Positions 5,201 through 50,436 of a stretch of 64,000 nt of DNA are shown piece by piece. The stretch's first letter is position 1. Each line of letters opens with the position of its first letter. The stretch comes from Conchocele bisecta (taxonomy: Eukaryota; Mollusca; Bivalvia; Lucinida; Thyasiridae). The stretch covers positions 11,869,043 through 11,933,042 of the forward strand of contig CM055267.1 of NCBI GenBank assembly GCA_029237695.1, in the 5' to 3' direction. The notes beneath the pieces were generated by a model, which searched no databases, was not told where the DNA came from, and saw only the letters and a list, made by a program, of their open reading frames with translations. The position numbers were made by a program, and so were the translations under genes.

Positions 5201-5248
5201 AAAAGTTATTGCAAGAGAAAGAACCCTATTGATTTAAAAAAATAACCA

Positions 5249-5504
5249 GGGGGCCGTTTCACTAAACTTCGTAAGACTAAAATGTGCGTAAGTGCAGCAG
5301 CTATGATAGTCTGTAAAATTTCACATTAAACCACATTAACAATGTTTTTTCTTGTAGAACATTATTGATTTACATTTATTGAGCATAGGCTTCATATGCA
5401 TGCTATGCTCAATAAATGTAAATCCATCAATTGAAATTTGCAGATGATCCTATATTTGCACTTACGAACATTTTAGTCGTACGAAGTTTAGTGAAACGGG
5501 CCCC
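5249..5504. mobile_element. Palindromic MITE, family P
   Basis: About 256 bases bounded by inverted ends GGGGGCCGTTTCACTAAACT and its complement ending in GGGCCCC. The centre is a near-perfect palindrome (ATTTACATTTATTGAGCATA and its complement). The whole element can fold on itself and has no coding capacity. Other copies in the window: 13055-13306, 26943-27158, 31053-31298, 53762-53983, 54451-54701, 63351-63690, and a core at 51342-51405. Confidence 0.88.
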
Positions 5505-5694
5505 AGTTAATTATCTCAGTACGATCATGCCTCAGCTGGCTATATAGTTTGTTGTGAGTGGGGAATGGGGGACACAGAAGATACAGAAACAAAATTATAT
5601 ATCAATTATAGTGTAACATATATTTAACATGATAAGACAAACATAATTACATGTAAGTACAAACATCAGATTCAGCACTATATCAATGCCATCA

Positions 5695-7910: not shown

Positions 7911-8397
7911 TGGTGGCCATTTTTGTCGCGCTTTCGTTTGCAAAATGCGACTCTAGTCCACACTTTTTCTGTTGCCGCCGTCATCGTCAAATGATCACTC
8001 TGGACCATTTCTTGTTGAAATCGGATGACTACGTCATCCAAGATGGCTGTCAAAAGGCCATCCTTTTAATATAGATTTCAAATGTCTTCTTCTTGTGAAC
8101 CACTTGGCCGTATCCTGATCAAACTTTACTGTTAGGGTGCGTGGGTGAAGACTTTTCATAGTTGTTACGATGGAGGATGTCGCATAATCCAAGATGGCCA
8201 CCATAGAAAAGTAGGTCAAATTCTTCAAATATTTTCTTCTCGACGAAATTTGGCAGGAATGATCGCATTGTCAATGTTCTTTCAGATTTGTTTTTTACAA
8301 GTATGATGCTGGGATCAAAACGGTGCGGGCCTGGGGGCTCGTTTTCTTTGGCTGCCAGCCGGGGCATTCGTGTGCCGACAGGCCACATTTCTAGTTA
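7911..8397 (+). repeat. AAGATGG-type dispersed repeat with terminal GGCCACATTTCTAGTTA (copy 1)
   Basis: Contains ATCCAAGATGGCTGTC and ATCCAAGATGGCCACC, AATTTGGCAGGAATGATCG and CTTTCAGATTTG, all shared with 23392-24290. It ends in GGGGCATTCGTGTGCCGACA and GGCCACATTTCTAGTTA, which is also the end of the elements near 20747 and 33107 and, on the minus strand, 60717. It is a dispersed element end with no gene. Confidence 0.7.
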
Positions 8398-8504
8398 ATA
8401 AATTAGTTTATTAAAAATTCATAATGTGAAGTAAAACTGTCTGATTAATTTTTGGCCCTTTTTGCCCCATCACATGCACATATACGGTTCGAAAATATCC
8501 AACT

Positions 8505-8607
8505 GTGGGTAATCGTTTGCCGTGGCACGAGGGAACTGTTTGAATCCCAAGGCCGCAGGCCGCTGGTTCAAACAGTTCCCTCGTGCCACGGCAAACAATT
8601 TACCCAC
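8505..8607. repeat. Long hairpin, about 40-base arms (copy 1)
   Basis: The left arm (8505-8544) contains TTGCCGTGGCACGAGGGAAC and the right arm (8567-8607) is its reverse complement with one mismatch or indel. The loop is about 22 bases and contains GGCCGCAGGCC, itself palindromic. The stem is long and GC-rich in an AT-rich setting. It could be the core of a foldback element or, if transcribed, a structured RNA. Confidence 0.85.
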
Positions 8608-9113
8608 GGCCGGTACATGGTCGAACGTTATTGCTACATTTCCGTCGGCAATATCATGCAATTTAAGTATATATATGTAGTTACTTTTCGGTACTTTAAT
8701 AATCTGCTCCATTCAACTGCTGATTTACACATGCATATTCCGGGGCAGTAGTACACGTCGCGTGATGCAGCCCCGACCGCGCCAATTTCAAAGTTCAGTG
8801 TGCGACCGATTGATGAACTGGTCTGATGACGTAATGGCGGCGTTCTAGTAACGTCATGATACACATGCATTACGTAGTGATAGCTTGGCCCCCCCGAAAT
8901 GGCAGCATTGCCTGCAGCCATGGTCAAACAGCACTCGCTGTATGTTTGAACACTGCTGTGGAGCGGTGCAAACAACAGCAGTCCTGTAACCAATGTAGTT
9001 TGAGAGAAGCCGCGTCATAAATTTAAATTCGCTTTCAAATTAAGATGCCATTATGTGATGGTGGTTTGACACCGAATCGATCATGCACACCGCAGTAACA
9101 TGTGTTGCTTCAC
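8608..9113. other. No gene seen
   Basis: Sequence between the hairpin and the duplication junction, repeated at 16388-16870. Short frames differ between the two copies, so none is supported. Confidence 0.5.
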
Positions 9114-9466
9114 ATGAAATTACGTCAACAATGGTTCTAAACATAGTTTTTTTGAACTTATAAAATATTTAATTACATGTATTACATATGCTAAATCAAA
9201 CTTTGGCTCTTGCAGCGCTGGGAGTGACATTGTCAATCTGCAGGTTTATTATAAGTATTACTGTCTTTTTTCAATAACACGTGCAAGTTTTTTATTGACA
9301 ATTCTGGTCTCTCATTAATGACGATTCTAATGTACCACTCAACCATGAAGTCTTAATAGAACAGTGATTTCTACCCAGTACTGCAAGAACAAAAGAGGGT
9401 AAATATCTGTAATTGTATATTTTGTGTTTGTATCTGACTATTACATGTATATTATGTACGGTTTGT

Positions 9467-11810: not shown

Positions 11811-11923
11811 TTATCCTGAAAATTTTATTTCATGTGATGCATATAACAGTCAATGATGTTTAATCTAGAGTAATGTGGGCGGCCATGTAATGCTATGTAA
11901 TAGTTTTGTTCACATATTGAATT

Positions 11924-13006
11924 TTTATGCCCCCGCCACCGAATTGTGAGGGGGGCATATAGTGTCACCGGCGTCCGTACGTACGTAACGTACGTAACGT
12001 ACGTCCCAAAACCTTAACGCTCGGGTAAATGGCTTATAGTTTCTGTTTCCTTGCTCGGATCTGCTTCTCATTTCACACACGCATTGCTCCAATGGTCCTC
12101 CACCGCCCTGTGACAAATCCACATTCGTCCCGCCCCCGCTAAGCCCAGGGTCAAGGTCACAGACTTGGTGCGTTCGAAACCTTAACGCTCAGGTAAATGG
12201 CTTATAATTTCTGTTTCCTTGCTCGGATCTGCTACACATTTCACACACGCATTGCTCCAATGCTCCTCTACCGCCCTGTGACAAATCCACATTCGTCCTG
12301 CCCCCGCTAAGCCCAGGGTCAAGGTCACAGACTTGGTGCGTTCGAAACATTAACGCTTGTGTAAATGGCTTATAATTTCTCTGTTTCCTTGCTCGGATCT
12401 GCTTCACATTTCACACACGCATTGCTCCAATGGTCCTCCACCGCCCTGATTCAAATCCACATTCGTCCCACCCCCGCTAAGCCCAGGGTCAAGGTCACAG
12501 ACTTGTGTGTTCAAAACCTTAACGCTCGGGTAAATGGCTTATAATTTCTGTTTCCTTGCTCGGATCTGCTACACATTTCACACACGCATTGCTCCAATGC
12601 TCCTCTACCGCCCTGTGACAAATCCACATTCGTCCTGCCCCCGCTAAGCCCAGGGTCAAGGTCACAGACTTGGTGCGTTCGAAACCTTAACGCTTGTGTA
12701 AATGGCTTATAATTTCTCTGTTTCCTTGCTCGGATCTGCTTCACATTTCACACACGCATTGCTCCAATGGTCCTCCACCGCCCTGATTCAAATCCACATT
12801 CGTCCCACCCCCGCTAAGCCCAGGGTCAAGGTCACAGACTTGTGTGTTCAAAACCTTAACGCTCGGGTAAATGGCTTATAATTTCTGTTTCCTTGCTCGG
12901 ATCTGCTACACATTTCACACACGCATTGCTCCAATGCTCCTCTACCGCCCTGTGATGAATCCACATTCGTCCTGCCCCCGCTAAGCCCAGGGTCAAGGTC
13001 ACAGAC
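11924..13006. repeat. 168-base satellite-like array with 5' hairpin leader (copy 2)
   Basis: Direct counterpart of 4109-5200, nearly identical: the same TATGCCCC leader, the same number of units, and TCAAGGTCAC once per unit. Confidence 0.87.
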
Positions 13007-13054
13007 AAAAGTTATTGCAAGAGAAAGAACCCTATTGATTTAAAAAAATAACCA

Positions 13055-13306
13055 GGGGGCCGTTTCACTAAACTTCGTAAGACTAAAATGTGCGTAAGTG
13101 CAAAGCTATGATAGTCTGTAAATTTCACATTAACCACATTAACAATGTTTTCTTGTAGAACATTATTGGATTTACATTTATTGAGCATAGGCTTCATATG
13201 CATGCTATGCTCAATAAATGTAAATCCATCAATTGAAATTTGCAGATGATCCTATATTTGCACTTACGAACATTTTAGTCGTACGAAGTTTAGTGAAACG
13301 GGCCCC
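13055..13306. mobile_element. Palindromic MITE, family P (duplicate)
   Basis: Counterpart of 5249-5504 in the second tandem copy, with the same flanking bases. It was therefore present before the large duplication. Confidence 0.88.
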
Positions 13307-13501
13307 AGTTAATTATCTCAGTACGATCATGCCTCAGCTGGCTATATAGTTGTGGAGTGGGGAATGGGACACAGAAGATACAGAAACAAAATTATATATC
13401 AATTATAGTGTAACATATATTTAACATGATAAGACAAACATAATTACATGTAAGTACAAACATCAGATTCAGCACTATATCAATGCCATCATTACGTGGA
13501 C

Positions 13502-14912
13502 TTAAATACTAAAAGCATGGCCTTTGGATGACGTAATTATCCGATCCGATAGTCCATGTCGCAATTTGGACTTCGCCAGCAAATTGTCTTCCGACCAACT
13601 CGCGTCTAGCTGTCCCTGTAGAACTCGCAGAAAGACAAAGGCAGCTGGTCCACCTGTCGGCCGCCCTGTCTCCACTGGTGCTACCCCCCTGCTGGTGACC
13701 TTCTGGCGCGACCTGCCTGACCTCTGTCGGGTCGTCTGCTGCCCCTCTGGTGTTTCAACCGCCATGGATTCTGTGATAGACTGTGCTACCTCTTGGACCT
13801 AAAAATAGGAGCCAACTTCATTTTAAATTGCATGTTAATTTTCACAGACATCAATCGATGAACGATGACAAGTGTAATCTACATAATAGCATGTGACTTT
13901 TCATGATAACTATTTACAAACTTTATGAAACTTTGTAAATGACGTCAACAGTTTGGCAAAATTTTCTGAGCTATAATTTTCACGATCTAAAAATCAATAA
14001 CAGTATTTGTAAATATTTTTACATGAAAATTGCACATCACATGGAGCAAAATCAGATGTCTTGTCTTAATCATGTAGGGCTCAACAGTCTTTATTATGAT
14101 AAACCCATTTCATGCTGGAGGATACGCTATTTTGTTTGTAGAAAAATCAATATATGTTTTCTTTATATGTCGTGACCACCATTTGAACCGTCTCATTGAG
14201 ACGGTTCAAATGAGTGGTCACAACATATACTTTCATTGAGAAATAACAAAAATAAAATTAAATTATAACAGTAGGTGTATTCAGAATATAATTGGTTAAA
14301 TACAAGTAACTTAATATCAGAAATAATCTGCTTGAAATATATTTATATCATGCAGATGTTTCATCTACCATGCCACAAGCGGATTTATTGGCAACTTAGT
14401 CTGAGTGCTAATCTCCTTACCTGGTGCCATTTGCTGGTCTGGTACTGCCTATACATGTGACGTACGCCCTCGTGGACGGACAGACGGAGGACGGTGTGGA
14501 AGTCACGTGACTCGGCCCCGTCCAGCGCGGCGGTCAGCAGTTGGCGACTCAGGGGCACGATCTGGGTATCTGGAAGGAGATTGGTGAAATGGTAGCACAT
14601 GGGAAGAAAATAAAAGAAATGACTACTTGTCTAATGGTAAATGTTTCTAGTTCTTCTAAAAACATTATTCTTTATGTATTCTTGACACTTTCACAAAAAA
14701 ACTATCCGTTGCCCATTATAGAGCCAGATGACTATCCAGGACATATGACTCACACCTGCTAGTTTTATCTTAAATTCAATATTCAACGATTTTTACAGTG
14801 TGATAGCTCATTATCTATCAAGTAACTTACCTAATGTAGACACCTGTCTGTCAGCGTTGTCATGGGCAACCAGCAGGTCACGGAGTCCAGCAGCAGCGGT
14901 AACAGCGTCCAT
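13502..14912 (-). CDS. Unknown three-exon gene, 175 aa, intact copy
   Basis: I built this model from splice sites and frame. Exon 1 (14912-14831) starts at ATG with good context (AAACATGG) and ends at donor GTAAGTT after 27 codons plus one base. Exon 2 (14569-14421) follows acceptor TCTCCTTCCAG, begins with two bases (completing Asp28), holds 49 codons and ends at GTAAGG. Exon 3 (13798-13502) follows acceptor ATTTTTAG and adds 98 codons to TAA. All phases agree and the total is 528 bases. The protein has no signal peptide or membrane segment and is mostly charged/polar. It opens MDAVTAAAGLRDLLVAHDN; exon 2 contains PLSRQLLTAALDG and LRLSVHEGVRHMYRQY; exon 3 includes FLRVLQGQLDAS and NLLAKSKLRHGLSDR. 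I do not recognise the family. Exon 3 differs from copy 1 by several indels, so its middle residues are uncertain. More 5' exons are possible. Confidence 0.6.
14165..14228. repeat. Hairpin-forming inverted repeat (copy 2)
   Basis: Identical counterpart of 6359-6422, again inside the intron of the minus-strand gene. The arms are preserved base for base. Confidence 0.8.
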
Positions 14913-15690
14913 GTTTAAATATGGCTGGTATTGAAATAGAAATGTGGTGGACTAATACAACTGTCTGGGTTAGAGTAGCAGGAATGGTGACAAAATCCGG
15001 GAATCTGCTGTTTATATACCTGCCATTTTGGTCATCCTGATAATTAGCACTAATTAGGAAGTAATCACCTGAGCTTTGGTCACATTAGCTATGCCTTTGA
15101 TCTTATAATAGGTGAACAACATAAGTGTTGCTAATTAGTATCTTTAAGTGTTAATTACCAATTTAAATGTTTGTAATGACTTGAAGGCATATTCATTACT
15201 AATTGTACTGGTACTTGTGATCAAAAGGTTTTCTTTTTAAATGATTTAACTTTTCCATTAATGACTTGTGTATACTGATTGCCTTAAACAAGACATATAC
15301 CATCAAAGGAGAAAATTAATTGGTGCCTGAAGTGCGGTTAATTGGTTATTTGGCATGGTTCCAAAAGAATCTTCCCTGAAAGTGATCTAGTGTGAAAACA
15401 GCATAATGGATTTTAAAATTCATAAAACAATTTCTTTCGTACATAAATTAAAATCTTTCCCATAAATAACTGTAATTGAAGACCAGCTAATATCTATTTT
15501 GTTCATTATTTTTGCTCAACCATTTGAACAAAAGAGACACATTATGTCTACTTTGTATGAGCGAGTGGGCACAGTTTTCCTCATAATAACTCAAGTTCTA
15601 CTTGGCAGATCTTACCCAAATACGGCATAATTGTTTATCCTTAATGAGGAAGAAACTTATTGAATTTATAAGATTTCAGATGATTAATCT
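14913..15690. other. Upstream region of the unknown gene, nothing defined
   Basis: AT-rich sequence upstream (minus strand) of the ATG at 14912. I see no confident TATA box, CpG island or further exon, though the promoter or 5' noncoding exons should lie here. The counterpart in copy 1 is 7116-7910. Confidence 0.45.
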
Positions 15691-16190
15691 CCTCATGGTG
15701 GCCATTTTTGTCGCGCTTTCGTTTGCAAAATGCGACTCTAGTCCACACTTTTTCTGTTGCCGCCGTCATCGTCAAATCAAAGAAATGATCACTCTGGACC
15801 ATTTCTTGTTGAAATCGGATGACTACGTCATCCAAGATGGCTGTCAAAAGGCCATCCTTTTAATATAGATTTCAAATGTCTTCTTCTTGTGAACCACTTG
15901 GCCGATCCTAATCAAACTTTACTGTTAGGGTGCGTGGGTGAAGACTTTTCATAGTTGTTACGATGGAGGATGTCGCATAATCCAAGATGGCCACCATAGA
16001 AAAGTAGGTCAAATTCTTCAAATATTTTCTTCTCGACGAAATTTGGCAGGAATGATCGATAGTCAATGTTCTTTCAGATTTGTTACAAGTATGATGCTGG
16101 GATCAAAACTGGGCGGGGCCTGGGGGCTCGTTTTCTTTGGCTGCCAGCGGGGGCATTCGTGTGCCGACAGGCCACATTTCTAGTTAATAA
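15690..16190 (+). repeat. AAGATGG-type dispersed repeat (copy 2)
   Basis: Counterpart of 7911-8397, with the same AAGATGG motifs and the same GGCCACATTTCTAGTTA end. A nine-base insertion (ATCAAAGAA-like) at about 15777 distinguishes it. Confidence 0.7.
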
Positions 16191-16285
16191 ATTAGTTTAT
16201 TAAAAATTCAATATGTGAAGTAAAACTGTCTGATTGTTTGGCCCGCCCCATCACATGCACATATACGGTTCGAAAATATCCAACT

Positions 16286-16387
16286 GTGGGTAATCGTTTG
16301 CCGTGGCACGAGGGAACTGTTTGAATCCCAAGGCCGCAGGCCGCGGGTTCAAACAGTTCCCTCGTGCCACGGCAAACATTTACCCAC
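16286..16387. repeat. Long hairpin, about 40-base arms (copy 2)
   Basis: Counterpart of 8505-8607 with the same arms. The loop differs by one base (CCGCGGG instead of CCGCTGG), and the arms still pair. Confidence 0.85.
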
Positions 16388-16870
16388 GGCCGGACATGGT
16401 CGAACGTTATTGCTACATTTCCGTCGGCAATATCATGCAATTTAAGTATATATATGTAGTACTTTCGGTACTTTAATAATCTGCTCCATTCAACTGCTGA
16501 TTTACACATGCATATTCCGGGGCAGTAGTACACGTCGCGTGATGCAGCCGCGCCAATTTCAAAGTTCAGTGCGACCGTTGATAACTGGTCTGATGACGTA
16601 ATGGCGCGTTCTAGTAACGTCATGATACACATGCATTACGTAGGTGATAGCTTGGCCCCGAAATGAGCATTGCCTGCAGCCATGGTCAAACAGCACTCGC
16701 TGTATGTTTGAACACTGCTGTGAGCGGTGTCAAACAACAGCAGTCCTGTAACAATGTTAGTTTGAGAGAAGCGCCGTTCATAAATTCGCTTTCAAATTAA
16801 GATGCCATTATGTGATTGGTGGTTTGACACCGAATCGATCATGCACACGCAGTAACATGGTGTGCTTCAC

Positions 16871-17221
16871 ATGAAATTACGTCAACAATGGTTCTAAACA
16901 TAGTTTTGAACTTATTAAAATATTTAATTACATGTATTACATATGCTAAATCAAACTTTGGCTCTTGCAGCGCTGGGGAGTGACATTGTCATCTGCAGGT
17001 TTATTATAAGTATTACTGTCTTTTTTCAATAACACGTGCAAGTTTTTTATTGACAATTCTGGTCTCTCATTAATGACGATTCTAATGTACCACTCAACCA
17101 TGAAGTCTTAATAGAACAGTGATTTCTACCCAGTACTGCAAGAACAAAAGAGGGTAAATATCTGTAATTGTATATTTTGTGTTTGTATCTGACTATTACA
17201 TGTATATTATGTACGGTTTGT
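16871..17221. repeat. Large tandem duplication, truncated copy 3
   Basis: The first 351 bases of the unit recur here, matching 9114-9465 almost base for base. Similarity stops at the point where the 24-base minisatellite starts in the other copies and runs into unrelated sequence (GGGAGATGGCCCC). The array therefore ends at a minisatellite boundary. Confidence 0.88.
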
Positions 17222-24746: not shown

Positions 24747-25949
24747 TCATGGATCTGGTGCACAGTCTCGCTGGTGGTAATCGCGCGATTGCATTGTCGA
24801 GAACGTCACATCATCGTCAAATGCCACGACTGTCTGTAATGCACACCATGCTGCCTTGGTCTCGTAAGACTTACAGTCCGTATAGTTCAGGCAATTCTCA
24901 TGACATTTTAATTCATTCTCAATGGTATGGTAAATCTGGACATCATTAAACAGGATCACCATTTTTTCCACGTACTGGAACGTGTTTCCGTACACGGAGC
25001 AGTGTGTGACACAGCTGTTATTAGACGGTGAGTAACTGAGGCCCGGTTGACACCAGCATTCCTCATCGCGACACTCCGAGTCCATGACGAGACAGTCGTT
25101 GTCGTTCTTACACGCGGCAAACATGGTGATGGTAGGTCCGGCGTGACAGGTTTGGGTCTGTGTCCAGGACCCATTGGTGCACGTTGTAGTGTTGGGGCCC
25201 ACCATCTGGGAGTCGCCCGAGCATGTGTAGGTGAGATGGGAACCCGGCAGGATGTCCAGTCCTACAACCGGGCTTAGGTCGCTGTGCTGGCCCAGCATGG
25301 TCATTCCCATGGAGGTGTATATGGTGCCCGCCCAGACCTCCATCCCAGGGACAACAGGGGGAAGTCCGCACGTCACTAAACACTCGCCGAGCTGGCTCCA
25401 TTTACCGACCTCCTGGCACGTGGCCGTCCGCGGGCCGGTCAGTGCCACCCCCGCCCCACACTCGACCGACACCCGCGCGCCGATCTGTCTCCTGTTGCCC
25501 AGCAGTAGTCCAGTGGCTGGAGCTGCCAGAGCTTCACATATTGCGTACTCACATGTCGTCCCATTTGATCCCACCTGGCGACACCGCGTCCTGTCTGTGC
25601 AGGTGTGTGCCACACACAGTCCGAGGTGCGGGGACGGTAGCTGGCTCCACATGGCCAGGTACACCCACCCCCGACACACAGCCACGGTACCCCCTGTCGT
25701 CTCGTCCCCGTCATTGAGCTCACAACGCTGGCTCCGTACCGCGTAGTTCACAGACCTACACCGAGTCTGTCGCTGACACTCGTCCACACAGCCTCCCAGA
25801 GACAGACTGTACTCATGGATGGCCAGGGTGCCCTGCAGGCATGTATGGAACCGCATACCCCCGCTGGCTGCCAACTGACCCCACACCGCACGTAGGCCGG
25901 CCACGAACATACACACCAGGATCACTGGCAGGACACGCAGGCTGCTCAT
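24747..25949 (-). CDS. Secreted PAN/sushi-domain protein, intronless, 400 aa
   Basis: One uninterrupted frame. I chose the ATG at 25949 because it gives a clean signal peptide (basic start, hydrophobic PVILVCMFVAGL, small residues near position 24); an upstream in-frame ATG at 26021 would add 24 polar residues. Domain order (residues): PAN/apple-like 34-102 (Cys37, 54, 58, 64, 76, 92); sushi/CCP 138-190 (Cys138, 164, 178, 190, Trp184); sushi/CCP 194-268 (Cys194, 243, 257, 268, Trp262); a short EB/EGF-like cysteine module 280-313; second PAN-like 317-396. Several N-glycosylation sequons (NGT, NTT, NGS) are present and there is no membrane segment or GPI tail. The product is probably an extracellular adhesion or recognition protein; PAN and sushi folds bind proteins or carbohydrates, but the ligand is unknown. 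GC content is far above the flanks. Lack of introns suggests retrotransposed origin or a single large exon. Confidence 0.82.
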   Translation of the reverse strand: MSSLRVLPVILVCMFVAGLRAVWGQLAASGGMRFHTCLQGTLAIHEYSLSLGGCVDECQRQTRCRSVNYAVRSQRCELNDGDETTGGTVAVCRGWVYLAMWSQLPSPHLGLCVAHTCTDRTRCRQVGSNGTTCEYAICEALAAPATGLLLGNRRQIGARVSVECGAGVALTGPRTATCQEVGKWSQLGECLVTCGLPPVVPGMEVWAGTIYTSMGMTMLGQHSDLSPVVGLDILPGSHLTYTCSGDSQMVGPNTTTCTNGSWTQTQTCHAGPTITMFAACKNDNDCLVMDSECRDEECWCQPGLSYSPSNNSCVTHCSVYGNTFQYVEKMVILFNDVQIYHTIENELKCHENCLNYTDCKSYETKAAWCALQTVVAFDDDVTFSTMQSRDYHQRDCAPDP

Positions 25950-26056
25950 GTTGTAGACACTGTATATACACGTGGTGTCATGTGAGACTTCCGACCAGTG
26001 AATGACTCGTATCTGTGACATAATGAAAAGATGCCAATGGAAAAAAATCTGATTAC

Positions 26057-26104
26057 ACCACCCACCTGCTGTCGAACTGCCAGTACGACAACAGGTGGGT
26101 GGGT
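26057..26104. repeat. Inverted repeat upstream of the PAN/sushi gene
   Basis: CACCCACCTGCTGTCG pairs with CGACAACAGGTGGGTG across an 11-base loop (one bulge). It lies about 40 bases upstream of the outer ATG (26021) on the minus strand, so it could be in the 5' UTR or promoter. The arms include CACCTG E-box-like sites. Confidence 0.7.
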
Positions 26105-26495
26105 TGATGCGATTTTTTTATGTGGCATTTGTTTACAGTGGCGTTGTCAGAGGAGGTGCAAGGGTACGAACAAACTCCTTCAAATGTCAGGTGTGTCTTT
26201 TGGCTTTAAATTATGTTTTTCTGAGGGAAAACGACTATAATATATGTGATAAGTATAGCTAAACGCACTACAATCAAGGAATTTTCATGTAGAAGCTCCC
26301 GCACCCCTTTAAAAACTTGATCCACAATTCACACCCCCCTCGGCAAGAACCTGGCTGCACCATTGTTTTATGTCACAGTTTCGAGTCTTTCACCTGTGAG
26401 ATTTCCTGGCCACTGTACTCGGCCATTGTATCCGTAATATTCCACTATAGCCATGGTTCACATTCCATATTGGACGTCATTTGAATCATGATATG

Positions 26496-36214: not shown

Positions 36215-36406
36215 GTGACGATATTGAGTGGCAAAGACGGCAGTGTGCTGTGGACCCTCGAGTCGACAAACTGCCAGATGGTGTCCGACCTCACGATAAA
36301 AACAGCCGACCCCCACAGGGACATGTTCCTCTACAGGGTTAAAGGTCGCGAGTTCAAGTTCAAGTTCAATGCCAACGGAACAATCACAAGGCTCGGGGAT
36401 AAACAG
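36215..36406 (+). CDS. FAM234-like exon a (64 codons)
   Basis: Acceptor TTGACCCCCAG, donor CAG|GTACAA. Reads VTILSGKDGSVLW through RLGDKQ in phase 0 at both ends. Clearly coding composition against an AT-rich background. Confidence 0.75.
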
Positions 36407-42400: not shown

Positions 42401-45400
42401 AACCGACTGAGCTAGCCGGGCACGAATACACACCTGCCTATAGTAAGTTACGTACCGTGACATAATTGCCCTTGTTACAGCGGCGGCATGGTGGAGATGA
42501 ATCTGGAAGGAAGAACATTGTTCCCATCGTAAACGGATCTCTGGGTGAGTGAATCATTCATTGCCATGGTAATTGTCTGAATACATTGACTGTGAGTATA
42601 TATAAATGATGTGCCTGACATTCTTACTGAGCCATATATTTGAGATATTGTTACCATCGTCTATTAACCATTTCAGAACCACAAGACTAATGCTTGCAAA
42701 CCGCTCAATCATCGTCTATGGGTGAAGAGTTTTCAAAATTGTTATAATGGAAGTCGTCGCTTAATCCAAGATTTAGGTTTAGTGATACTGGTAGCCGAAA
42801 TAGCGATGCTGAGATGTTGGCAACTAAGAGGTTCAGAAGAAATTATTTGTACTACATGTTTGTGTTTATAAATATTGGAGCAAATGTAAAATAGTATTGT
42901 GTGTTTTCGCGTTATCAGTTCATTCTGGTTACTAATTTCAAAATCTTACCGCTAACTTAGAAAATGGCCTTTACATTGAAGTTTGTCCAGGCCACAAGGA
43001 GTCAAATGTCTACAGACTCCAAGGGGCCAAATGTCAAGTTTACTCGGTTGGATATTTTATTGCTGCAGTATAATATGACGTTCTTTCAATATAAACAATA
43101 TTCCACTATATTTCGAGATATCATAGCGGAAAGTGTCACCTGATAAACAAAACAATATACTTTTGTCCTCTGAATCAGCAATAACAGGCTTTGCTCTAAA
43201 ACAGTAGGAATTCCAGGGCAAGCCTCATAATAATTCCTGCACATTTCTTCATCTCAACTCACGTGAGTTGCGTCAGCATGGTATTCTCTATAATATAGAT
43301 GTACATGTGTATGTATTTGTCCAGACGACTCGTTGCGTCTGGACTACCTGCGACACCATGTGGTGTGTGAAGACGACCTGTCCAGTTACCAGAATGAAGT
43401 GTTCCTCATGGACCATGGCAGTCAGGTCCTCCCCTACCACGTGCTAACCCTGCCCTCCACCAGATACTACTACAGTAAGTACTCACAGTGTGGGGGTGAC
43501 CTGTCCAGTTACCAGGATGAAGTGTTCCTCATGGACCATGGCAGTCAGGTCCTCCCCTACAGGGCTTCTAAAATGTTCAGTTTGTCGGTTCTGGACCGAT
43601 TTTTGAACTCTGACTGATGGAGATTTGAAAACTAGTCTTAAAAATCGGTCCGAGAAAAATTGCCAGTTGGCTGCTATTTCGCTATAAACCTTGTAAATTT
43701 ACCGTTTGTGACCACCAAGTAATGTCCATTTTATGACACATATCCGCGGGCCATATCCGTCGGGTGTAAAACTCGCTGTGTATTCAGTTTCTCCTAGTAT
43801 CGATTTTCTTAACACACGCGTGATAATTGGGACAGGTGTATAGCAGCTTAGTGACTTAAATACACTGGCTTCAGCGTAAAGATACGAGAGTTCCTAGACT
43901 CGACATTTCTGATGATGTTAAAATATAATAAAGAAACCATGCACTGTGTTTATCTGTGTTCGTAATATTTAACCGCAAGTAACTGACACGGACTATCGGC
44001 CCGAGCTATTCCATATTAAGTTAGGAACTGTTACATTACGCTGTATTAGGGGTCATTTTTGTGTATATAAAATGTACATGTACGTAGGAATGCCGCAGAT
44101 CCTGATGAGCCGGCTCACGTGATCTACAATTCGCAAACATTTTGATAAATGACAAGGTACATCTGTCGTGTTAAAAGCGTGACTCATCAGGGATTAGGGA
44201 TCAATGGAAGTCCTAAATCACACCGCCGATTTACTTTGAACTCGATCTGAGAGTTAAAGAAACACTGAATGTTAATTAAATTGTACAATTAATTGTTTAA
44301 CACATAATTCAATTAAATTGATGCGTTTGCAGCTAGCCAAATTAGGCCGACAATTTATTTTGAAGTCTGTGTGAACAGTGATAATAGCATACTTAGCAAT
44401 GAATCACGAGTTGGGTATATAACGCATTTTTTTTCTATGTAGTCCGGCATTCAATTATTATTGAAATGGCACAACAAACTATTTTGTTGTTATTCACAAA
44501 GACAACTTACCGGCTTGGTAACCCGGCAGAGAGTAGAGATCGGGCCGACACCCCGAACGTGAAAGAAAACCGGAGTGGCGACCCGGTTAGGGCTGGCAAC
44601 CCAAATGTATATATATCGGGCTGGCAACCCAAGGGAGAATGAAAACCGGTGTGGCGACCCGGTTCTAAGCGATTCTGACGGGACTCTACTCGCAAACGTA
44701 GTGGCTAGCTGCAGTACAACGCAATTTTATTTAAAACACGACACACACCTCAACAATAAATAAATAAAAGACGAAACAAGAAACAGATTTGTAAATTTTT
44801 TATTTATTTTAGTCTACCGAAAATGTACCGGCAATCAATCGGCATCACGTCACAATTAGTCTCTGTCGTTTCGCATTTTTTCCGTCTTTGTGCTATTTAG
44901 GTACACCACGTCACCCGGTGCATACACAATTTTGTCCACTTTTGTTGTTTATAAACACGACTTATTTATCCCAATACAACATTTATCCCATTATTTCTAG
45001 TACTTTGTTTGAACGTCGAAATTTCAGTTAAAGTTTTAATAGAGCGGGATGGGGAGAGGGGGAGGGTTTGCTCCATCAGCTTCAGGCCGACAATGGCCGA
45101 CAGTGTTACGTCTGCACTCTGGACCGATTGGCATTCTGAAATTTTAGAAGCCCTGCTCCCCTACCACGTGGTCACCCTGCCCTCCACCAGATACTACTAC
45201 AGTAAGTACACACAGTGTAGGGGTGACCTGTCCAGTTACCAGGGTGGGGTGTTCCTCATGGACGATGGCAGTCAGGTCCTCCCCTACCACGTGGTCACCC
45301 TGCCCTCCACCAGATACTACTACAGTAAGTACCCACAGTGTAGGGGTGACCTGTCCAGTTACCAGGGTGGGGTGTTCCTCATGGACGATGGCAGTCAGGT

Positions 45401-48400
45401 CCTCCCCTACCACGTGGTCACCCTGCCCTCCACCAGATACTACTACAGTAAGTACACACAGTGTAGGGGTGACCTGTCCAGTTACTAGGGTGGGGTGTTC
45501 CTCATGGACGATGGCAGTCAGGTCCTCCCCTACCACGTGGTCACCCTGCCCTCCACCAGATACTACTACAGTAAGTACCCACAGTTTTGGGGTGACCTGC
45601 CCAGCTACCAGGGTGGGGTGTTCCTCATGGACCATGGCAGTCAGGTCCTCTCCTACCACGTGGTCACCCTGCCCTCCACCAGATACTACTACAGTAAGTA
45701 CCCACAGTTTTGGGGTGACCTGCCCAGCTACCAGGGTGGGGTGTTCCTCATGGACCATGGCAGTCAGGTCCTCTCCTACCACGTGGTCACCCTGCCCTCC
45801 ACCAGATACTACTACAGTAAGTACCCACAGTGTGGGTGTGACCTGTCCAGTTACCAGGGTGGGGTGTTCCTCATGGACCATGGCAGTCAGGTCCTCTCCT
45901 ACCACGTGGTCACCCTGCCCTCCACCACATACTACTACAGTAAGTACACACAGTGTGGGTGTGACCTGTCCAGTTACCAGGGTGGTGTTCCTCATGGACC
46001 ATGGCAGTCAGGTCCTCTCCTACCACGTGGTCACCCTGCCCTCCACCACATACTACTACAGTAAGTACACACAGTGTGGGTGTGACCTGTCCAATTACCA
46101 GGGTGGTGTTCCTCATGGAACGTGTCAGTCAGGTCATCACCTACCACATGGTCACCCTGCCCTCCACCACATACTACTACAGTAAGTACACACAGTGTGG
46201 GTGTGACCTGTCCAATTACCAGGGTGGTGTTCCTCATGGAACGTGTCAGTCAGGTCATCACCTACCACATGGTCACCCTGCCCTCCACCAGATACTACTA
46301 CAGTAAATACCCACAGTGTGGGTGTGACCTGTCCAGTTACCAGGGTGGTGTTCCTCATGGACCGTGGCAGTCAGGTCCTCCCCTACCACGTGGTCACCCT
46401 GCCCTCCACCACATACTACTACAGTAAGTACCCACAGTGTGTGTGTTATCTCTCGCATATATGCCATGTTAAGGTCAGGTGATTTAGAAATACAGTAAAA
46501 CCTCACTAAACCCAGAACAGCTCCTCGTTTTTAATGTTGATAGATTTTATTACAATTGATCTGTAAAGACAATGTATGTTCATGATTGCATAGGACATAT
46601 TACTGTCTTAAAAACAATTTTTCTGCAGACATATATCAAATTAACTTGAAATGTTTGTTATCACCAAGTATTTAGGAATGTTCATTTCTGCTAAATTCAT
46701 ACAATTTTGTGTTTGTTTTAAAAGATGGAAGCATTGCTGTACAATATACAAAAAATCAATATTGCCACTATTTCACCAATATTTATGTCACCCGACTGTA
46801 TATCCGACCTATATTGTTCTGCACAGATATCAGTAAGCCGTCCGATGTGGAAACCAATGACGTCCCGCTGGAGAGTGACCACCATGTAGGTCACACCGAC
46901 ACCGCCTCCGTTCCAACGATTCCAGACACCGCCGCTGATCCCACAGCACAGGGCCACGGTGAGGAGCAGACATGGCAGCAGGTCTGTAGTGTGATGGAAG
47001 CAGACGACCATTCCACAGGTACGGTAAACACAATATCTTCACTGTTTGGAGAATGTTAGTTTAAACATATTTTATTTGCATATTGTTTACAAGTTCATTG
47101 TCAATGTCAATGTTACTATATACAGTACTATACAAATGGGATTGAATTGAAAGCAAGCTTATTTAAATCCTCTCCCTTACATGTGACTTAGATATCATAG
47201 GATGCCGAAACCAAGACATTCCTGCCATCAGCTTTAGAGTAGTTTATATTCTGTGATAATTGATATTTTCTGGATTATAAGTTGTTCTGGTTTCAGCATC
47301 CTTTGATACACGGCAATTACATTAAAGCAATTAAATTTAAAATTTCTGAAAAATATAGTGTTGACACAAATGTACAGGCAATAGGTTCTATATAATCAAT
47401 TATGTGATACACAATGTACATGAAATGGAAAAAAATAAGGAAAGAAGCAAGCGACAATAGGAGTTGGAGTCTTGTTCCCACACCAAGCCCAGTTATCGCC
47501 ACAACCAAGTCAGTTAGTGATGAGTATGTGCACACGCAGGCATCATTATATGGTGCATTAAAAACGACCGGTTTTTTGTATGAATAGTCTAACTGATGTG
47601 AAAATGGCTTCATTGGAGTTATTGTCAAGTTGTCTGTTACCATAGAGTATAGTGTGGAGGGTGGGTTGGCAAAACGTTCGTATGTCGTCTATTAGTTGGG
47701 CTCTATGTGCTCCATATTGAGTGCAGTGGAAACAGAAATGGGTGGTATCTTCAACTTGTCCACAGTTACAGTTGAGCGAGTCAATAATGTTCTTACGATA
47801 TAAATCATGATTGAGATAACTGCATTTCGTTCGAAGACGTGTGTGTAATACCTGGACATACCTAATACCACTGTAGTAGTAGGTTGGGACCTCTCCGGTA
47901 TTTGTTTTTATTTTGGTTTTAAAACAATTAAGTGATGGTGCGTTCCGTGTGTCATCTGGAAGAGAGTTCCACTCCCGGATAGTGGATGGTAGAAACGAGT
48001 TATAATAAAGGGTGGTTCTGGACCATAAACTCTGTATATTCTCAGGGTTTCGTAAATTGTAACGGGACGTATCTATTTCTGGTGGAAGCACATCGACCAA
48101 GTAACTGGGTGAGATGCCATTTTTATACGACCGTTTTTAAAAAACGGTACGTATTATGTTTTACCGCATGGCGGGCGGGCGGCTGAAGAAAAAGTGCATA
48201 GTTCGTGTACACTACTCCTCCGAAACCGTTCAGTCGATCGATGTGAAACTATACACACGTCTTCTACACATATTGAAGATGTGCACCTTGGTGTTTTTAT
48301 GCCGAAAAAATATATTTTAACAAAAATATCGCCTTTTTAACTTAGCCATTTTTTCTTCTACATTTTTCTATACAATTCTATATACGGTACAGAGTTTGTG

Positions 48401-50436
48401 TACACAACTCATCCGAAACTGTTCAGTTGATCGTTCTGAAACTATACACACGTCTTCTACACATATTGAAGATGTGCACCTTGGTGTTTTTATGCCGAAA
48501 AAATATTGTTTAACAAAAATATCACCTTTTTACCTTAGCCATTTTTTCTACATTATTGTATCCAATTCCCTATCATTTCTACTTTACACTCTACTTTTCT
48601 ATCTCTGCCTACATTAGTATACATGTTTAACACAACGAGATGAAGAAATAATGCTATAGACTTTCAAATTCTCATTAATGTTTCTTGCCTTGGTGACAGC
48701 TTCACATTTCTGCATCTTCGCTGTCTGGCCCATATTTGACGGTCGTATTTTGTGACTTGCGGCACTGTTGTTCATTTTGTAAAATAGGGACAATTTATGG
48801 GAGTGACGTCTATTTTCTAATGTTTCCCAGCAGGTTTCTATATATAAGGACTTGATTGAAACAAGCCGAGTGGCACCTGTAGCGATACGTGCTGGACAAT
48901 GTTTACAAGGGGTGTTCGAAACGTTTGCTGCAAAGTGTTACACAACCATTTTAAAGTACATTTCCATTTGAACCCTTTCACCCCAAAGTAACTGGAATGG
49001 ACTGTGATATGTTAATTTTTTTACCAATCCAATCGTCACAAAATGATTTTCAGACGAGTCCATTTATGAAAAGGGGGTGGATTTTTTTCTCAAAAATGTG
49101 AAAATTACTTTAAAAAAGTGCAGATCCTGATGAGACGGCTCGTCACGGCTCATCTGGATCTACACTTTTTACCCATGCCACCGTACAGGCATGTTGTGTT
49201 GAAAGTGTTAAGGTGTATCTATATGTCTGATTCTTGCCATAGCCACTGATTTTATCATTTTTCCAAGGCAAACTCGGCTGGGTGTCTACTGATCACTGCT
49301 TCAATTTTCAGCCCAGTTCTTTGAAATTCATTCCATTTTCAAGATTATGATTACATTACAGCAAAAATCAACTTAATATGGTAGTAGAATTATGGTGATA
49401 CTGATTTACCAGTGTGATGTTAATTACAACGTCATCGTGTCATTATTCTTGTGATTGTAGCTATCACAAGTAAGTGATTACCACACATTTACAACTGCAG
49501 TACAAACTACCAGCTTGTGTTGCTGAAAATATCTTTTTATGCCCCTAATCTCAGTAGAGCTGGGAGGCATATAGCATTTGGACTGTGTGTCCGTGAGTTA
49601 GGGTAAGACGTTTGCTGGAGTTTCTACATACTACCACCGGGGCCATTTGGCTTCCGACAGACAGGCCACATTTTCGTGTTGAAGGTAGATGCCCACAGAT
49701 TTGTTAAAACAAATCTTTGTAATTATTAAACGAATAATGTAATGTAAACAATATTTGTGTAACTAATCCACCCTTTTTATGCTCCCGCCACCGAATGTTG
49801 AGGCGGTCATATAGTGTTAGCGGAGTCGGTACGTCCGTACGTCCCTAAACCTTAACGCTCGGGTAAATGGCTTATAATTTCTGTTTCCTTACTCGGATCT
49901 GCTTCACATTTCGCAAATGCGGAATTGAATTTGCTATGAAATTTTGTTGACTTTCGACGTCATTTACAGAAACTATAGTAAAATTTGTAGATATTTTTCA
50001 CGAAATATCGCACATGTTCGTCGGTTTATTTTTTGTAATTAAATATATTTTTTTTAACAAATCCGTGTGCATGGGGTGTGTCATATTTCACTGCTGTTGA
50101 GCAGGTGCTATAGGGGATGTGGACGGGGATGGCACCTTGGACTACGTCTCGATCAGCGAGTACCATGCAGCCCTGTATGGGGAGGGCTACAGCTACTGGA
50201 GGTCCAAGTACCGGATCATGCTCAACAAGGTGAACCTGTGGTCTATCGACCCCGGGCAGCGGCTGCAGCCACTGACCATCCAGGCATGGTCCAGCCTGGC
50301 AGACAACCGTGACAACGAACACACTGATACAGCTCAATCTGCACGCTATGCAAACTCGGCGGTACCAGTGAACCGTCAGCCATGGACACAATACATGGGC
50401 CGGCGCGGAAACAGCATCTACAACAACGATGTATAG
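36215..50436 (+). CDS. FAM234 (ITFG3)-like gene, last five exons, 309 aa visible
   Basis: Five exons join without a stop: 36215-36406 (phase 0 to 0), 42481-42544 (0 to 1), 43325-43474 (1 to 1), 46827-47018 (1 to 1), 50105-50436 with TAG. The first exon encodes a beta-propeller-like strand pair (ILSGKDGSVLW) and FLYRVKGREFKFKFNANGT. The last encodes an FG-GAP/calcium-loop-like IGDVDGDGTLDYV. FAM234 proteins are single-pass type II membrane proteins with such an ectodomain; the N-terminus and membrane segment are not in the exons found, so 5' exons must lie upstream or outside the window. The fourth exon is a low-complexity Asp/Thr/Pro-rich spacer. The third exon (LSSYQNEVFLMDHGSQVLPY) has been amplified downstream into a tandem array. 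Introns total over 13 kb and are full of repeats. The family assignment rests on motif order and is moderately sure; the exon chain is more secure. Confidence 0.65.
36527..37915 (+). mobile_element. Element with 158-base tandem units, in FAM234-like intron
   Basis: A fragment of the AAGGAAGGAGTGCTTATGTC family (36535-36745) is followed by an element starting TATACCCCCACAAACAAAG at about 36772 with (GTCGGTCGGTCT)n. About six units of 158 bases then run to 37915, each with ATTCCCTTCCGCTCTATATC, GATGCATGGATTATCAAATG and CAAGGTCAAGGTCACAGTTG. The minus-strand twin lies at 60717-61435. Frames starting MHGLSNGLAQMFL are repeat by-products. Confidence 0.82.
37916..39420 (+). repeat. Diverged tandem repeats interrupted by a retroposon
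   Basis: 38200-38790 and 39080-39420 share CCTTTGGAATATTTTCATGA, ACTTCACACATGC and CAAAGGTGTGTCGCGTGCAA, in units of roughly 155-180 bases. The retroposon at 38791-39073 splits the array. 37917-38040 (CATAGTTTGTGTACACAACT) also occurs near 48200 and 48390. Confidence 0.65.
38791..39073 (+). mobile_element. (AAAC)-tail retroposon, 5'-truncated, inserted in array
   Basis: Begins at GTTGAATCTGGTTATACCCC and ends GGCCATTAAACACTAATAAA followed by CAAACAAACAAAC. It interrupts ...CATGAAACTTCA / ACACATGCAT..., which is continuous in neighbouring units, so the insertion point is clear. Confidence 0.75.
39421..40077. other. No exon; lone TTAA MITE end
   Basis: TTAACCCTTACAACACTACA at 39921 looks like the left end of a TTAA-type MITE (compare 29162). 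It is followed by GAGCCGGCTC and GATCAGGATCTGCACC, but no matching right end is present before the next element starts. Confidence 0.4.
40078..41720 (+). mobile_element. GGAAGGAGTGCTTATGTC element with about 170-base units, interrupted
   Basis: The leader AAGGAAGGAGTGCTTATGTC and GTCCGTCTGTCCG run into an insert at about 40165-40680 rich in TTATGTGGCTAAAAA and its complement TAGCCACATAAG, then resume at 40685. About six diverged units follow (TTAACGTTGAGGGAAATTTG, CACCAAACGTC, CCCCGCTAACCCCAAGGTCA). It ends CGCGCTTTGTTCTCTTCTGA. Confidence 0.65.
41721..42086. repeat. Palindromic repeat GCTCAAAATCAGG
   Basis: GTGCTCAAAATCAGGCAGTT (41940) and AACTTCCTGATTTTGAGCAT (41999) are inverted about a centre containing CAGCTCAGTC. 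Relatives lie at 62805 and 63240 (GGAAGTTTGATTGGACGAGG). No exon. Confidence 0.55.
42087..42214 (-). mobile_element. tRNA-Thr-like element with TGTCAC ends, copy 1
   Basis: On the minus strand it reads GCTAGCTCAGTCGGTTAGAG (A box), CTGTAAA anticodon loop (TGT, threonine-like) and a degenerate GGTCCCGGGTTT (B box). The element starts TGTCACAGGGCGAG and ends TACCGTGACA, so its termini are short inverted repeats. A duplicated GGGACCCGGGACC disrupts the T arm. Confidence 0.6.
42330..42463 (-). mobile_element. tRNA-Thr-like element with TGTCAC ends, copy 2
   Basis: Better preserved: A box, TGT anticodon loop and T arm CCCGGGTTTGAGCCCGGG all pair, but no matching acceptor stem is evident. The termini are the same, TGTCACAGGG...CCGTGACA. 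It stands 242 bases from copy 1 and ends about 18 bases before the acceptor of exon b, so it may contribute intron signals. Confidence 0.62.
42481..42544 (+). CDS. FAM234-like exon b (21 codons plus one base)
   Basis: Acceptor CCCTTGTTACAG, donor CTGG|GTGAGT. Reads RRHGGDESGRKNIVPIVNGS then Leu. Its leftover G joins AC of the next exon to give Asp. A tRNA-like element ends about 18 bases upstream of the acceptor. Confidence 0.65.
42545..43324. other. Intron sequence, no gene
   Basis: A short AAGATGG-type remnant (TCTATGGGTGAAGAGTTTTC, TTAATCCAAGATTTAGG, 42713-42780). Otherwise unremarkable AT-rich intron. Confidence 0.5.
43325..43474 (+). CDS. FAM234-like exon c (source of the tandem array)
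   Basis: Acceptor TATTTGTCCAG, donor TACTACA|GTAAGTAC. Reads DSLRLDYLRHHVV through LTLPSTRYYY. The 3' two-thirds plus the donor and about 20 intron bases form the repeated unit that follows. Both boundaries are phase 1. Confidence 0.75.
43475..46440 (+). repeat. Exon-derived tandem array, 123/121-base units with splice donors
   Basis: Starts immediately after exon c. The first extra unit (43475-43559) is cut by a transposon (43560-45155) and resumes at 45156. Donor-like ACA|GTAAGT sites fall at 43475 (real), 45202, 45325, 45448, 45571, 45694, 45817, 45940, 46061, 46182, 46303 (GTAAAT) and 46424. The spacing is exactly 123 bases up to 45940, then 121 because each later unit lost two bases (GGTGGGGTG to GGTGGTG). 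A 123-base unit is 41 codons, so read-through keeps frame and every donor has phase 1. One unit has an in-frame TAG at 45486. Adjacent identical unit pairs show local re-duplication. Confidence 0.92.
43560..45155. mobile_element. hAT-like nonautonomous transposon with 8-base target duplication
   Basis: Inverted ends CAGGGCTTCTAAAAT and ATTTTAGAAGCCCTG are flanked by CTCCCCTA on both sides (43552-43559 and 45156-45163). CAGGG-type ends and an 8-base target duplication are hallmarks of hAT elements. The 1596-base interior has no transposase frame. It contains GGTTCTGGACCGATTTTT/AAAAATCGGTCC inverted motifs and a cluster of GGCTGGCAACCC / GTGGCGACCCGG repeats at 44510-44670. It inserted inside a unit of the exon-derived array. 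Confidence 0.85.
46827..47018 (+). CDS. FAM234-like exon d (Asp/Thr-rich spacer)
   Basis: Acceptor TTCTGCACAG, donor ACAG|GTACGG. Reads ISKPSDVETNDVPLESDHHV and on to MEADDHST. Phase 1 at both ends, so it can be skipped or joined without frameshift. Confidence 0.7.
47019..47557. other. Intron with LINE 3' tail
   Basis: The part from about 47340 to 47557 continues the minus-strand LINE remnant as its 3' noncoding tail, with hydrophobic by-product frames. The rest is plain intron. Confidence 0.45.
47558..48118 (-). pseudogene. Non-LTR retrotransposon (LINE) reverse-transcriptase C-terminal fragment
   Basis: An open frame of about 187 codons ends at 47558 and extends upstream of 48100 as SPSYLVDVLPPEIDTSRYNL, the SYLxDLLPP-type motif common near the C-terminus of LINE polymerases. 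It then reads SFLPSTIREWNSLPDD, RYVQVLHTRLRTKCSYLN, and a Cys/His cluster (CNCGQVEDTTHFCFHC) like a terminal zinc knuckle. The catalytic core is missing because the 5' part is cut off at 48118 by another repeat. It lies antisense in the last intron of the FAM234-like gene. Intact frame suggests a fairly recent insertion. Confidence 0.75.
48119..48640 (+). repeat. Two tandem units of a dispersed repeat with hairpin leader
   Basis: Leader ACGACCGTTTTTAAAAAACG is self-complementary. Two units of about 185 bases follow, with ACTATACACACGTCTTCTAC, ATTGAAGATGTGCACCTTGG and TTTTATGCCGAAAAAATAT. The units resemble 37917-38040. Confidence 0.6.
48968..49211. mobile_element. MITE with CCCTTTCACCCC ends
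   Basis: TTGAACCCTTTCACC on the left, TTGAAAGTGTTAA on the right, with internal GCAGATCCTGATGAGACGGC and its partial complement GGCTCATCTGGATCTACAC as a hairpin. A half copy in the opposite direction lies at 62409-62570. Confidence 0.55.
49538..50045 (+). repeat. Two TATGCCCC-type leaders and a family F MITE arm
   Basis: TTTTTATGCCCCTAATCTCA at 49538 runs to GACAGGCCACATTTTCGTG near 49675, a short internally deleted element. A second leader (TTTTTATGCTCCCGCCACC) starts at 49774 and is cut at about 49922, where sequence resembling a MITE arm (GACTTTCGACGTCATTTACA) begins. Confidence 0.55.
50105..50436 (+). CDS. FAM234-like terminal exon e
   Basis: Acceptor GCTGTTGAGCAG. Joins as Gly then AIGDVDGDGTLDYVSISEY, and ends NSIYNNDV then TAG at 50434. 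The DVDGDGTLD loop is typical of FG-GAP repeats. GC content and codon use stand out from both flanks. Sequence just after the stop (ATGAGACATG, GTGATTTTGTAC) resembles one arm of MITE family F. Confidence 0.8.

What the first reader, a model, noticed from the sequence alone, without database searches (positions are those of the whole stretch)
43325..46440. An exon amplified into a frame-preserving array of 5' splice sites
Exon c of the FAM234-like gene, together with its own donor GTAAGT, was duplicated into 11 further units directly downstream. The first units are exactly 123 bases (41 codons) and every donor keeps phase 1, so choosing a later donor would lengthen the ectodomain by multiples of 41 residues without frameshift. 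This would be a length-variable extracellular module controlled by donor choice. Present obstacles are the transposon after the first extra half-unit, a TAG at 45486, and 121-base units from about 45941 onward, so this allele may be a decayed or partly silenced version.
Basis: partly seen in the sequence, partly recalled or inferred. Interest (0 to 1): 0.85.

Follow-up and report, generated by a model that had tools for sequence, protein, structure and literature searches.

The report
Tandem copies of a splice donor
The end of one exon and its splice site were copied eleven more times, probably by ordinary DNA slippage; the copies look like non-coding intron filler and not a protein-length switch, but the same accident is seen in other genes of this genome, which offers natural tests of how cells choose among repeated splice sites.

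Summary
The array is real. Exon c (43325-43474) of a FAM234-type gene, with its donor GTAAGT, is followed by 11 further copies of its 3' end plus donor: 12 donors, spacing 123 bases, later 121. A 1,596-base hAT-like element (15-base terminal repeats, 8-base target duplication) splits the first copy.

The proposed frame-preserving donor switch is not supported. Read past its own donor, exon c meets a stop inside the element. Leaving the element out of the count, a TAG sits in unit 4 and three of the last four donors are out of phase. Changes in the copies are not biased to silent sites (3 of 19). Exon c scores highest of the 12 units against the same exon in a second FAM234 gene (C9), which has the same donor in the same phase and no array.

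The design recurs: an earlier exon of this gene (at least 28 further copies, mostly 68-base units), an alpha/beta-parvin-like exon (mostly 73/74) and an SLC6-transporter-like exon (78/79). None keeps frame throughout.

Best explanation: a minisatellite founded by tandem duplication across an exon-donor boundary, tolerated as intron because the first donor is used. Donor use is inferred; no RNA could be examined.

The parts
36215..36406 (+). exon b of the FAM234-type gene
   Evidence: 46-48% identical to a C9 paralogue exon; CAG|GTACAA donor, phase 0. Its phase does not fit exon c's acceptor; junction unresolved.
43325..43474 (+). exon c, the coding copy and source of the array
   Evidence: open frame; 12 of 39 aligned residues identical to C9 exon c', tblastn E 3.1e-5 over 43 codons, the last few past the donor; same donor position and phase 1
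43475..43480 (+). exon c's own donor GTAAGT, conserved in the paralogue; most likely the one used
43365..43369 (+). GTGTG in exon c; with GTGTG 123 bases downstream in the intron (43488-43492) the likely founding breakpoint
   Evidence: (junction and tail sequences), positions read
43375..46441 (+). tandem array, 12 units U0-U11 (U1 split by the element): 123 bases for U0-U7, 121 for U8-U10, U11 runs out into the intron
43560..45155 (+). hAT-like element, 1,596 bases, 15-base perfect terminal inverted repeats
   Evidence: 3,718 first-look candidates in the genome, 40 scored, the one other copy matched over its full length 86% identical
43552..43559 (+). left target-site duplication CTCCCCTA
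45156..45163 (+). right target-site duplication CTCCCCTA
45486..45488 (+). TAG in unit 4, in the exon frame
46303..46308 (+). weakened donor GTAAAT of unit 10
44999..45000 (+). AG inside the element (TATTTCTAG) that could in principle open symmetric phase-1 exons of 201, 324 and 447 nt ending at the first three donors after the element
   Evidence: the AG is present in the 8 other element copies aligned there; no evidence of use
46827..47018 (+). exon d (phase 1 in, phase 1 out)
   Evidence: C9 counterpart ends in the same ...ACAG|GTACGG context
50105..50436 (+). exon e, last coding exon, FG-GAP-like DVDGDGTLDYV, stop TAG

Best explanation
A segment of 123 bases running from a GTGTG tract in exon c, across the donor, to a GTGTG tract 13 bases into the intron was duplicated in tandem, most likely by slippage or unequal exchange at that short homology (inferred). 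Further rounds made 12 units. One unit lost two bases and that shorter form spread; a hAT-like element inserted into unit 1 (order of these events not determined). All extra units lie in the intron between exon c and exon d. The spliceosome defines exon c from its acceptor to the nearest, ancestral donor at 43475 and removes the array with the intron (inferred, no RNA seen). The array is therefore a non-coding minisatellite that happens to carry a donor in every unit. It is one of at least four exon-3'-end-plus-donor arrays found in this genome, in which tandem arrays were common in the stretches sampled; such arrays are probably tolerated because the first copy leaves the exon intact.
For: Ancestral donor: C9 exon c' ends ...TTTTACA|GTAAGTTCACAG at the same place and phase, with no exon-derived array after it. 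Founding homology: exon GTGTG and intron GTGTG exactly 123 bases apart; the tail after the last unit keeps the unduplicated intron. No coding constraint seen in the copies: 19 distinct changes in the exon part = 15 replacing, 3 silent, 1 stop, neutral expectation 27% silent; minimal changes among U1-U11 by codon position 7, 6, 3. Exon c scores highest of the 12 units against the paralogue exon (54; others 24-52), and 10 of 11 copies lost Glu24. Read-through stops in the element. No AG between donors 1 and 7 is in the phase that would rejoin one of these donors in frame. Sister arrays: exon a of this gene, L055; parvin-like L063; SLC6-like L064. Two identical donors under exon definition gave exclusive upstream use in five of five human minigenes (PMC9225289). 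Introns on either side are long: 6.9 kb to exon b, 3.4 kb from 43475 to exon d (from coordinates).
Against: No transcript data, so donor use is inferred. 11 of the 12 donors have an identical core and equal computed U1 pairing, so later donors are not obviously dead; the columns around the donor vary least, though not significantly (2 variable of 36 columns, P 0.09). In the sister array of exon a, silent changes are in excess (7 of 12, against 25 of 117 possible changes), which a simple neutral model does not explain. PMC9225289 also reports that over all human events, donor strength not matched, the downstream donor is preferred in about 60%, and intron-definition rules would favour the last donor (46424), though its intron of about 400 bases is above the 250-nt limit given there. 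In the shifted part, 24 acceptor-donor combinations ending at donors 8-11 are open and keep phase, so an in-frame array cassette is not formally excluded.
Confidence: 0.85

Rival explanations
1. One reading: a frame-preserving array of alternative donors that lengthens the ectodomain by multiples of 41 residues, now decayed in this allele.
For: With the element left out of the count, donors 0-7 share phase; units 1-3 are open in frame to their donors; donor core nearly invariant.
Against: Unit 4 stop, shifted late units, 1,604-base insertion with stops; silent changes not in excess; the C9 paralogue has one donor there and no exon-derived array; sister arrays have unit lengths that break frame.
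Confidence: 0.04
2. The hAT-like element supplies an acceptor (for example AG at 45000) and the array supplies donors, making a new in-frame cassette of 201, 324 or 447 nt whose length depends on donor choice.
For: These three exons are open and symmetric in phase 1; the AG lies in a TTATTTCTAG-like context also found in other copies of the element.
Against: 6 of the 78 AGs in the element, with 3 donors each, give such open symmetric exons, and 24 more combinations lie inside the array, so such frames are easy to find by chance; acceptor quality was judged only by a crude pyrimidine count; no transcripts.
Confidence: 0.04
3. The extra donors are not used as splice sites but bind U1 and so strengthen or weaken recognition of exon c, or act as decoys.
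For: 10 of 11 extra donors have the same computed U1 pairing energy as the real one.
Against: No significant sign of selection to keep them; nothing tested.
Confidence: 0.07

Closest known systems
Minisatellite / VNTR founded by tandem duplication at short direct repeats
   Same: head-to-tail units, a neighbour is the closest relative of 9 of 12 units, short homology at the founding junction
   Different: every unit carries an exon 3' end and splice donor
[quoted passage not shown]
   Same: a tandem duplication that spans an exon-intron boundary and copies splice signals
   Different: the copied signal here is the 5' splice site, many times over; no evidence of a new intron or of splicing into the array
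Competing identical 5' splice sites (PMC9225289; abstract, first part of Results and passages read)
   Same: several donors of equal strength compete for one exon
   Different: natural, 12 donors instead of two; species not human; outcome not measured
Arrays of duplicated alternative exons (Dscam1 type; recalled, no call)
   Same: tandem copies of exon sequence inside one gene
   Different: no AG between donors 1 and 7 keeps frame to those donors; the units are not separate exons and show no coding constraint

Membership tests
Minisatellite | head-to-tail units of about 10-200 bases, high identity | tested here: met
   10.5 copies of 123 bases after the element, 96% matches
Minisatellite | unit number varies between individuals | not testable with these tools
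   one assembly only; no second place in it carries the donor pattern
FAM234 family (PF23727 Beta-prop_FAM234A_B) | Pfam match of the beta-propeller | tested here: inconclusive
   met for the joined pieces of the C9 paralogue (E 1.5e-20). The window's exons b-d give nothing and the start of exon e only FG-GAP_3 at E 0.0013, below cut-off; upstream exons on C3 match the C9 protein in order. The window gene as a whole was not scanned
hAT-like element | 8-base target-site duplication and short terminal inverted repeats | tested here: met
   CTCCCCTA twice, 15-base perfect terminal repeats
hAT-like element | hAT transposase in the element or an autonomous relative | not tested
   no transposase search was made
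Frame-preserving donor array | every unit keeps the reading frame | tested here: not met
   3 of 12 donors out of phase without the element, TAG in unit 4
Frame-preserving donor array | coding constraint on the copies | tested here: not met
   3 silent of 19 changes against 27% expected, P(at most 3) 0.20, P(at least 3) 0.92
Frame-preserving donor array | transcripts using several donors | not testable with these tools
   no RNA data
Intron gain by tandem duplication | a new intron flanked by the duplicated sites | not testable with these tools
   needs cDNA; AGs between donors 1 and 7 are out of phase, some in the shifted part are not

The most novel reading that the evidence does not exclude
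This genome repeatedly turns exon 3' ends plus their donors into minisatellites of about 12 to 29 competing donor-like sites, in several genes, and the cell reads them in an active way: either the many U1 sites alter definition of the first exon, or, at this locus, an acceptor brought by the hAT-like element joins the donors to make an in-frame extracellular cassette of 67, 108 or 149 codons chosen by donor. If so, a transposon would have rescued a dead donor array as a length-variable module.
Probability: 0.06. Interest if true: 0.8.

Novelty: new variant of a known kind. Interest (0 to 1): 0.4.

Why it matters
Choice among identical donors is usually tested in designed constructs with two sites. 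A genome with natural runs of a dozen or more copies of one donor, in genes such as a parvin and an SLC6 transporter, would show in ordinary RNA-seq whether the first donor always wins in a long-intron animal. It also suggests a simple filter in genome evolution: tandem amplification across an exon's donor end is tolerated because the first copy stays intact and the rest becomes intron.

Tried and rejected
Protein database search with exons b-e joined: 554 candidates, none at E <= 10. PDB sequence search with b-d: none. Donor pattern in viral contigs: none. Literature: (FAM234 names: 82 papers hold a term, 15 listed, none on molluscs or splice-site arrays by title); searches list no natural donor minisatellite by title or abstract start (24, 32 and 78 found no paper at all). 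That is ten searches in one open-access library and no proof of absence. In-frame cassette within the array: no AG between donors 1 and 7 keeps frame to those donors; 24 combinations ending at donors 8-11 do, and one AG between donor 0 and donor 1 has the right phase; I give them little weight because they read other frames or lack a strong acceptor, which was judged crudely. Genome-wide enrichment of donors in arrays: a pattern of three AGGTAAGT 58-88 bases apart has 636 places against 1,672 for the reversed control, so donors are NOT over-represented in tandem arrays by this test; recurrence may be a by-product of many arrays (28 with period >=40 and >=2.5 copies in 186 kb of window and fetched loci, a gene-chosen and not a random sample, in which the exon a array counts twice). 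The same pattern at 98-128 and a CAGTAAGT pattern did not complete. A survey of exon ends through kinase exons gave 135 places but no loci. Age of the element: not estimated.
Full report
What is there. The window lies on contig C3 of an unnamed 1.89-Gb, 1,196-contig assembly. Exon c, 43325-43474, ends ...TACTACTACA|GTAAGTACTCACAG. Eleven further copies of the last 100 bases of the exon plus 23 bases of intron follow (as I cut the units). Donors stand at 43475, 45202, 45325, 45448, 45571, 45694, 45817, 45940, 46061, 46182, 46303 and 46424. Spacing is 1,727, six times 123, and four times 121. The 1,727 is 123 plus a 1,596-base element and its 8-base target duplication CTCCCCTA; the element has 15-base perfect terminal inverted repeats and is hAT-like by these marks. 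The genome holds many relatives: 3,718 first-look candidates, 40 scored, the one other copy matched over its full length 86% identical.

Is it more than chance? Yes. The array scores 2,173 in Tandem Repeats Finder. The pattern TACTACAGTAAGTACNCACAGTGT with one mismatch allowed has 12 places in the whole assembly, all 12 here, none for the reversed control. A DNA search with exon c scored 2 candidate regions and gave 13 matches, all here.

The gene. Exons b-e gave no database relative; exons b-d match nothing in Pfam and the start of exon e gives a sub-threshold FG-GAP_3 match. A second gene in the same genome, at C9:37282747 to about 37299530, settles the family. Its joined pieces match Pfam PF23727 Beta-prop_FAM234A_B with E 1.5e-20. 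Exon b of the window is 46-48% identical to one of its exons. Exon c shares 12 of 39 aligned residues with another (tblastn E 3.1e-5). Searching the genome with the C9 protein finds upstream exons in order on C3 at 11791366, 11794961, 11800786, 11812386 and 11848547, leading to exon b at 11905257 (the second is weak there, E 4.6, but E 6e-8 in the local search). C3:11762905 is weak (E 0.35) and the local search found no match there. So the window most likely holds the 3' part of a long FAM234-type gene. A third relative lies on C6. The junction of exon b (phase 0) to exon c (acceptor needs phase 1) is unresolved; a small exon may be missing.

Which donor is ancestral. The C9 counterpart of exon c ends ...AAGTACTTTTACA|GTAAGTTCACAG: same place, same phase, same hexamer. 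After it there is no array derived from the exon. The donor at 43475 is therefore very likely the old one and the array derived.

How it began. In exon c a GTGTG at 43365-43369 stands exactly 123 bases before a GTGTG at 43488-43492 in the intron, and the sequence after the last unit keeps the unduplicated intron, CACAGTGTGTGTGTTATC. A tandem duplication with breakpoints in these tracts gives the unit. Frame preservation follows from that distance and had one chance in three. For 9 of 12 units the closest relative is a neighbour (matrix), as expected from slippage or unequal exchange (inference).

Does it code? The exon part of the 12 units holds 19 distinct changes: 15 replacing, 3 silent, 1 stop. 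A neutral model with the observed transitions and transversions expects 27% silent; the observed number is not above this (P(sim >= 3) 0.92, P(sim <= 3) 0.20). Minimal changes among U1-U11 by codon position are 7, 6 and 3. Against the C9 exon, exon c scores 54 and the other units 24-52. Of 12 residues shared by exon c and the C9 exon, 11 of 11 copies lost Glu15 and 10 of 11 Glu24; this count leans towards exon c by construction, and Glu15 lies at the duplication junction, so its loss may date from the duplication. With the element left out of the count, donors 0-7 share the phase and the last four are off by 1, 2, 0 and 1; unit 4 has TAG. In the real allele, exon c read past its donor ends at a stop inside the element after 96 codons. 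AGs between donors 1 and 7 are all out of the phase needed to rejoin these donors in frame; in the shifted part, 24 AG-donor combinations ending at donors 8-11 are open and symmetric, so a late cassette is not formally excluded.

The same thing elsewhere. While checking the gene's other exons I found a second array of the same design. Exon a (L055 3630-3723...WPLYTSSN|GTAAGT, phase 0) is followed by at least 28 more copies of its 3' end plus donor-like site, mostly 68-base units. Of the 29 sites the first two are GTAAGT, 23 are GTATGT and four differ otherwise. Reading past the donor meets a stop after five codons. Of nine exons of this gene examined (homologues of p3, p4, p5, p6, then a, b, c, d, e), two carry such an array; the first exons of the gene were not found. 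Of the C9 gene, none of ten exons examined, and of the C6 gene none of six, comparing Tandem Repeats Finder rows with exon positions by eye. A genome-wide pattern search for three AGGTAAGT spaced 58-88 bases listed only its first places, up to C3:45 Mb; among them I read exon-like units by eye at C1:213.5M, C1:106.0M and a family at C1:6.8-7.1M and 43.1M. Two were fetched. L063 holds FHDGVYLVLLLGLLEGYFVPLHSFHLTPTEFDQK|GTAAGT, alpha- and beta-parvin by PDB sequence (E 1.4e-13, 1.1e-12), followed by units of 73/74 bases (once 78); 19 overlapping triple matches imply 21 donors. L064 holds ...LVFLCLIKGVKSIGK|GTAAGT, an SLC6 transporter exon (SNF, E 3.9e-8), followed by steps of 79 and 78 bases. 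The 88-base family was not followed.

What this says. The design recurs in at least three genes. 68, 73, 74 and 79 are not multiples of three (78 is), so none of the three sister arrays keeps frame throughout, and the frame-preserving look of the window's first units is best taken as an accident. Donors are not favoured by the test I could run: the triple pattern has 636 places against 1,672 for its reversal, and of 28 long-period arrays in 186 kb of window and fetched loci only this one has GTRAGT in its consensus unit (not a random sample). The plain reading is a genome rich in tandem arrays, some of which span an exon's donor end and survive because the first copy keeps the exon intact.

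How splicing most likely copes. Carranza and colleagues (PMC9225289; abstract, first part of Results and passages read) report that under exon definition and near-equal strength the donor nearest the acceptor across the exon is preferred, and that in five of five human minigenes with two identical CAG/guaagu donors the upstream one was used exclusively. They also report that over all human events, strength not matched, the downstream donor is preferred in about 60%, and that two weakened donors in larger exons led to skipping. They put the change from intron to exon definition near 250 nt. Here the upstream intron is about 6.9 kb and the downstream one 3.4 kb from the first donor or about 400 bases from the last. 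I therefore expect use of 43475. This is inference; no RNA was available and the species is not human.

What argues the other way. Eleven of 12 donors have the same core and the same computed U1 pairing. The donor region varies least among the units, though not significantly (P 0.09). In the exon a array, 7 of 12 changes in the exon part are silent, against 25 of 117 possible changes; by hand this is about P 0.006, and I have no good explanation, since reading through that array meets a stop at once. An AG inside the element at 45000 could open symmetric in-frame exons of 201, 324 and 447 nt with the first three donors after it; 6 of the 78 AGs in the element do so, so I give this little weight.

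Verdict. The proposed module is unlikely. The better finding is a recurrent class of exon-end-plus-donor minisatellites in one genome, which makes donor competition testable from ordinary RNA-seq.

Noticed in passing
L055 3630-5720 (C3:11848630-11850720): Exon a of the same gene is followed by at least 28 more copies of its 3' end and donor-like site, mostly 68-base units; 7 of 12 distinct changes in the exon part are silent, unexplained.
   Followed up: partly
L063 1218-1600 and on (C1:213516018-213517563): Parvin-like exon end plus donor AAG|GTAAGT repeated with mostly 73/74-base spacing, 21 donors by the listed matches.
   Followed up: partly
L064, minus strand (C1:106045754 downwards): SLC6-transporter-like exon end plus donor repeated with 78/79-base spacing.
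   Followed up: partly
C1:6769407-6771080, 6881598-6887591, 7148379-7149090, 43120025-43122056: A family of mostly 88-base units containing AGGTAAGT that reads like an exon end (TIVGITIYCCLGKYRGCGRDDG) at four places.
   Followed up: no
window 4054-9466 and 11867-17221: A segmental duplication of about 5.4 kb at 96% identity, with flanking more diverged copies.
   Followed up: no
window 24750-26117, minus strand: A 456-codon open frame with a signal-like stretch that looks by eye like sushi/apple-type extracellular domains (resemblance recalled, not checked against Pfam).
   Followed up: no
window 44534-44758: Stretch 975-1199 of this hAT-like copy, with a 55-base direct repeat, is missing from the alignments of several other copies.
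   Followed up: no
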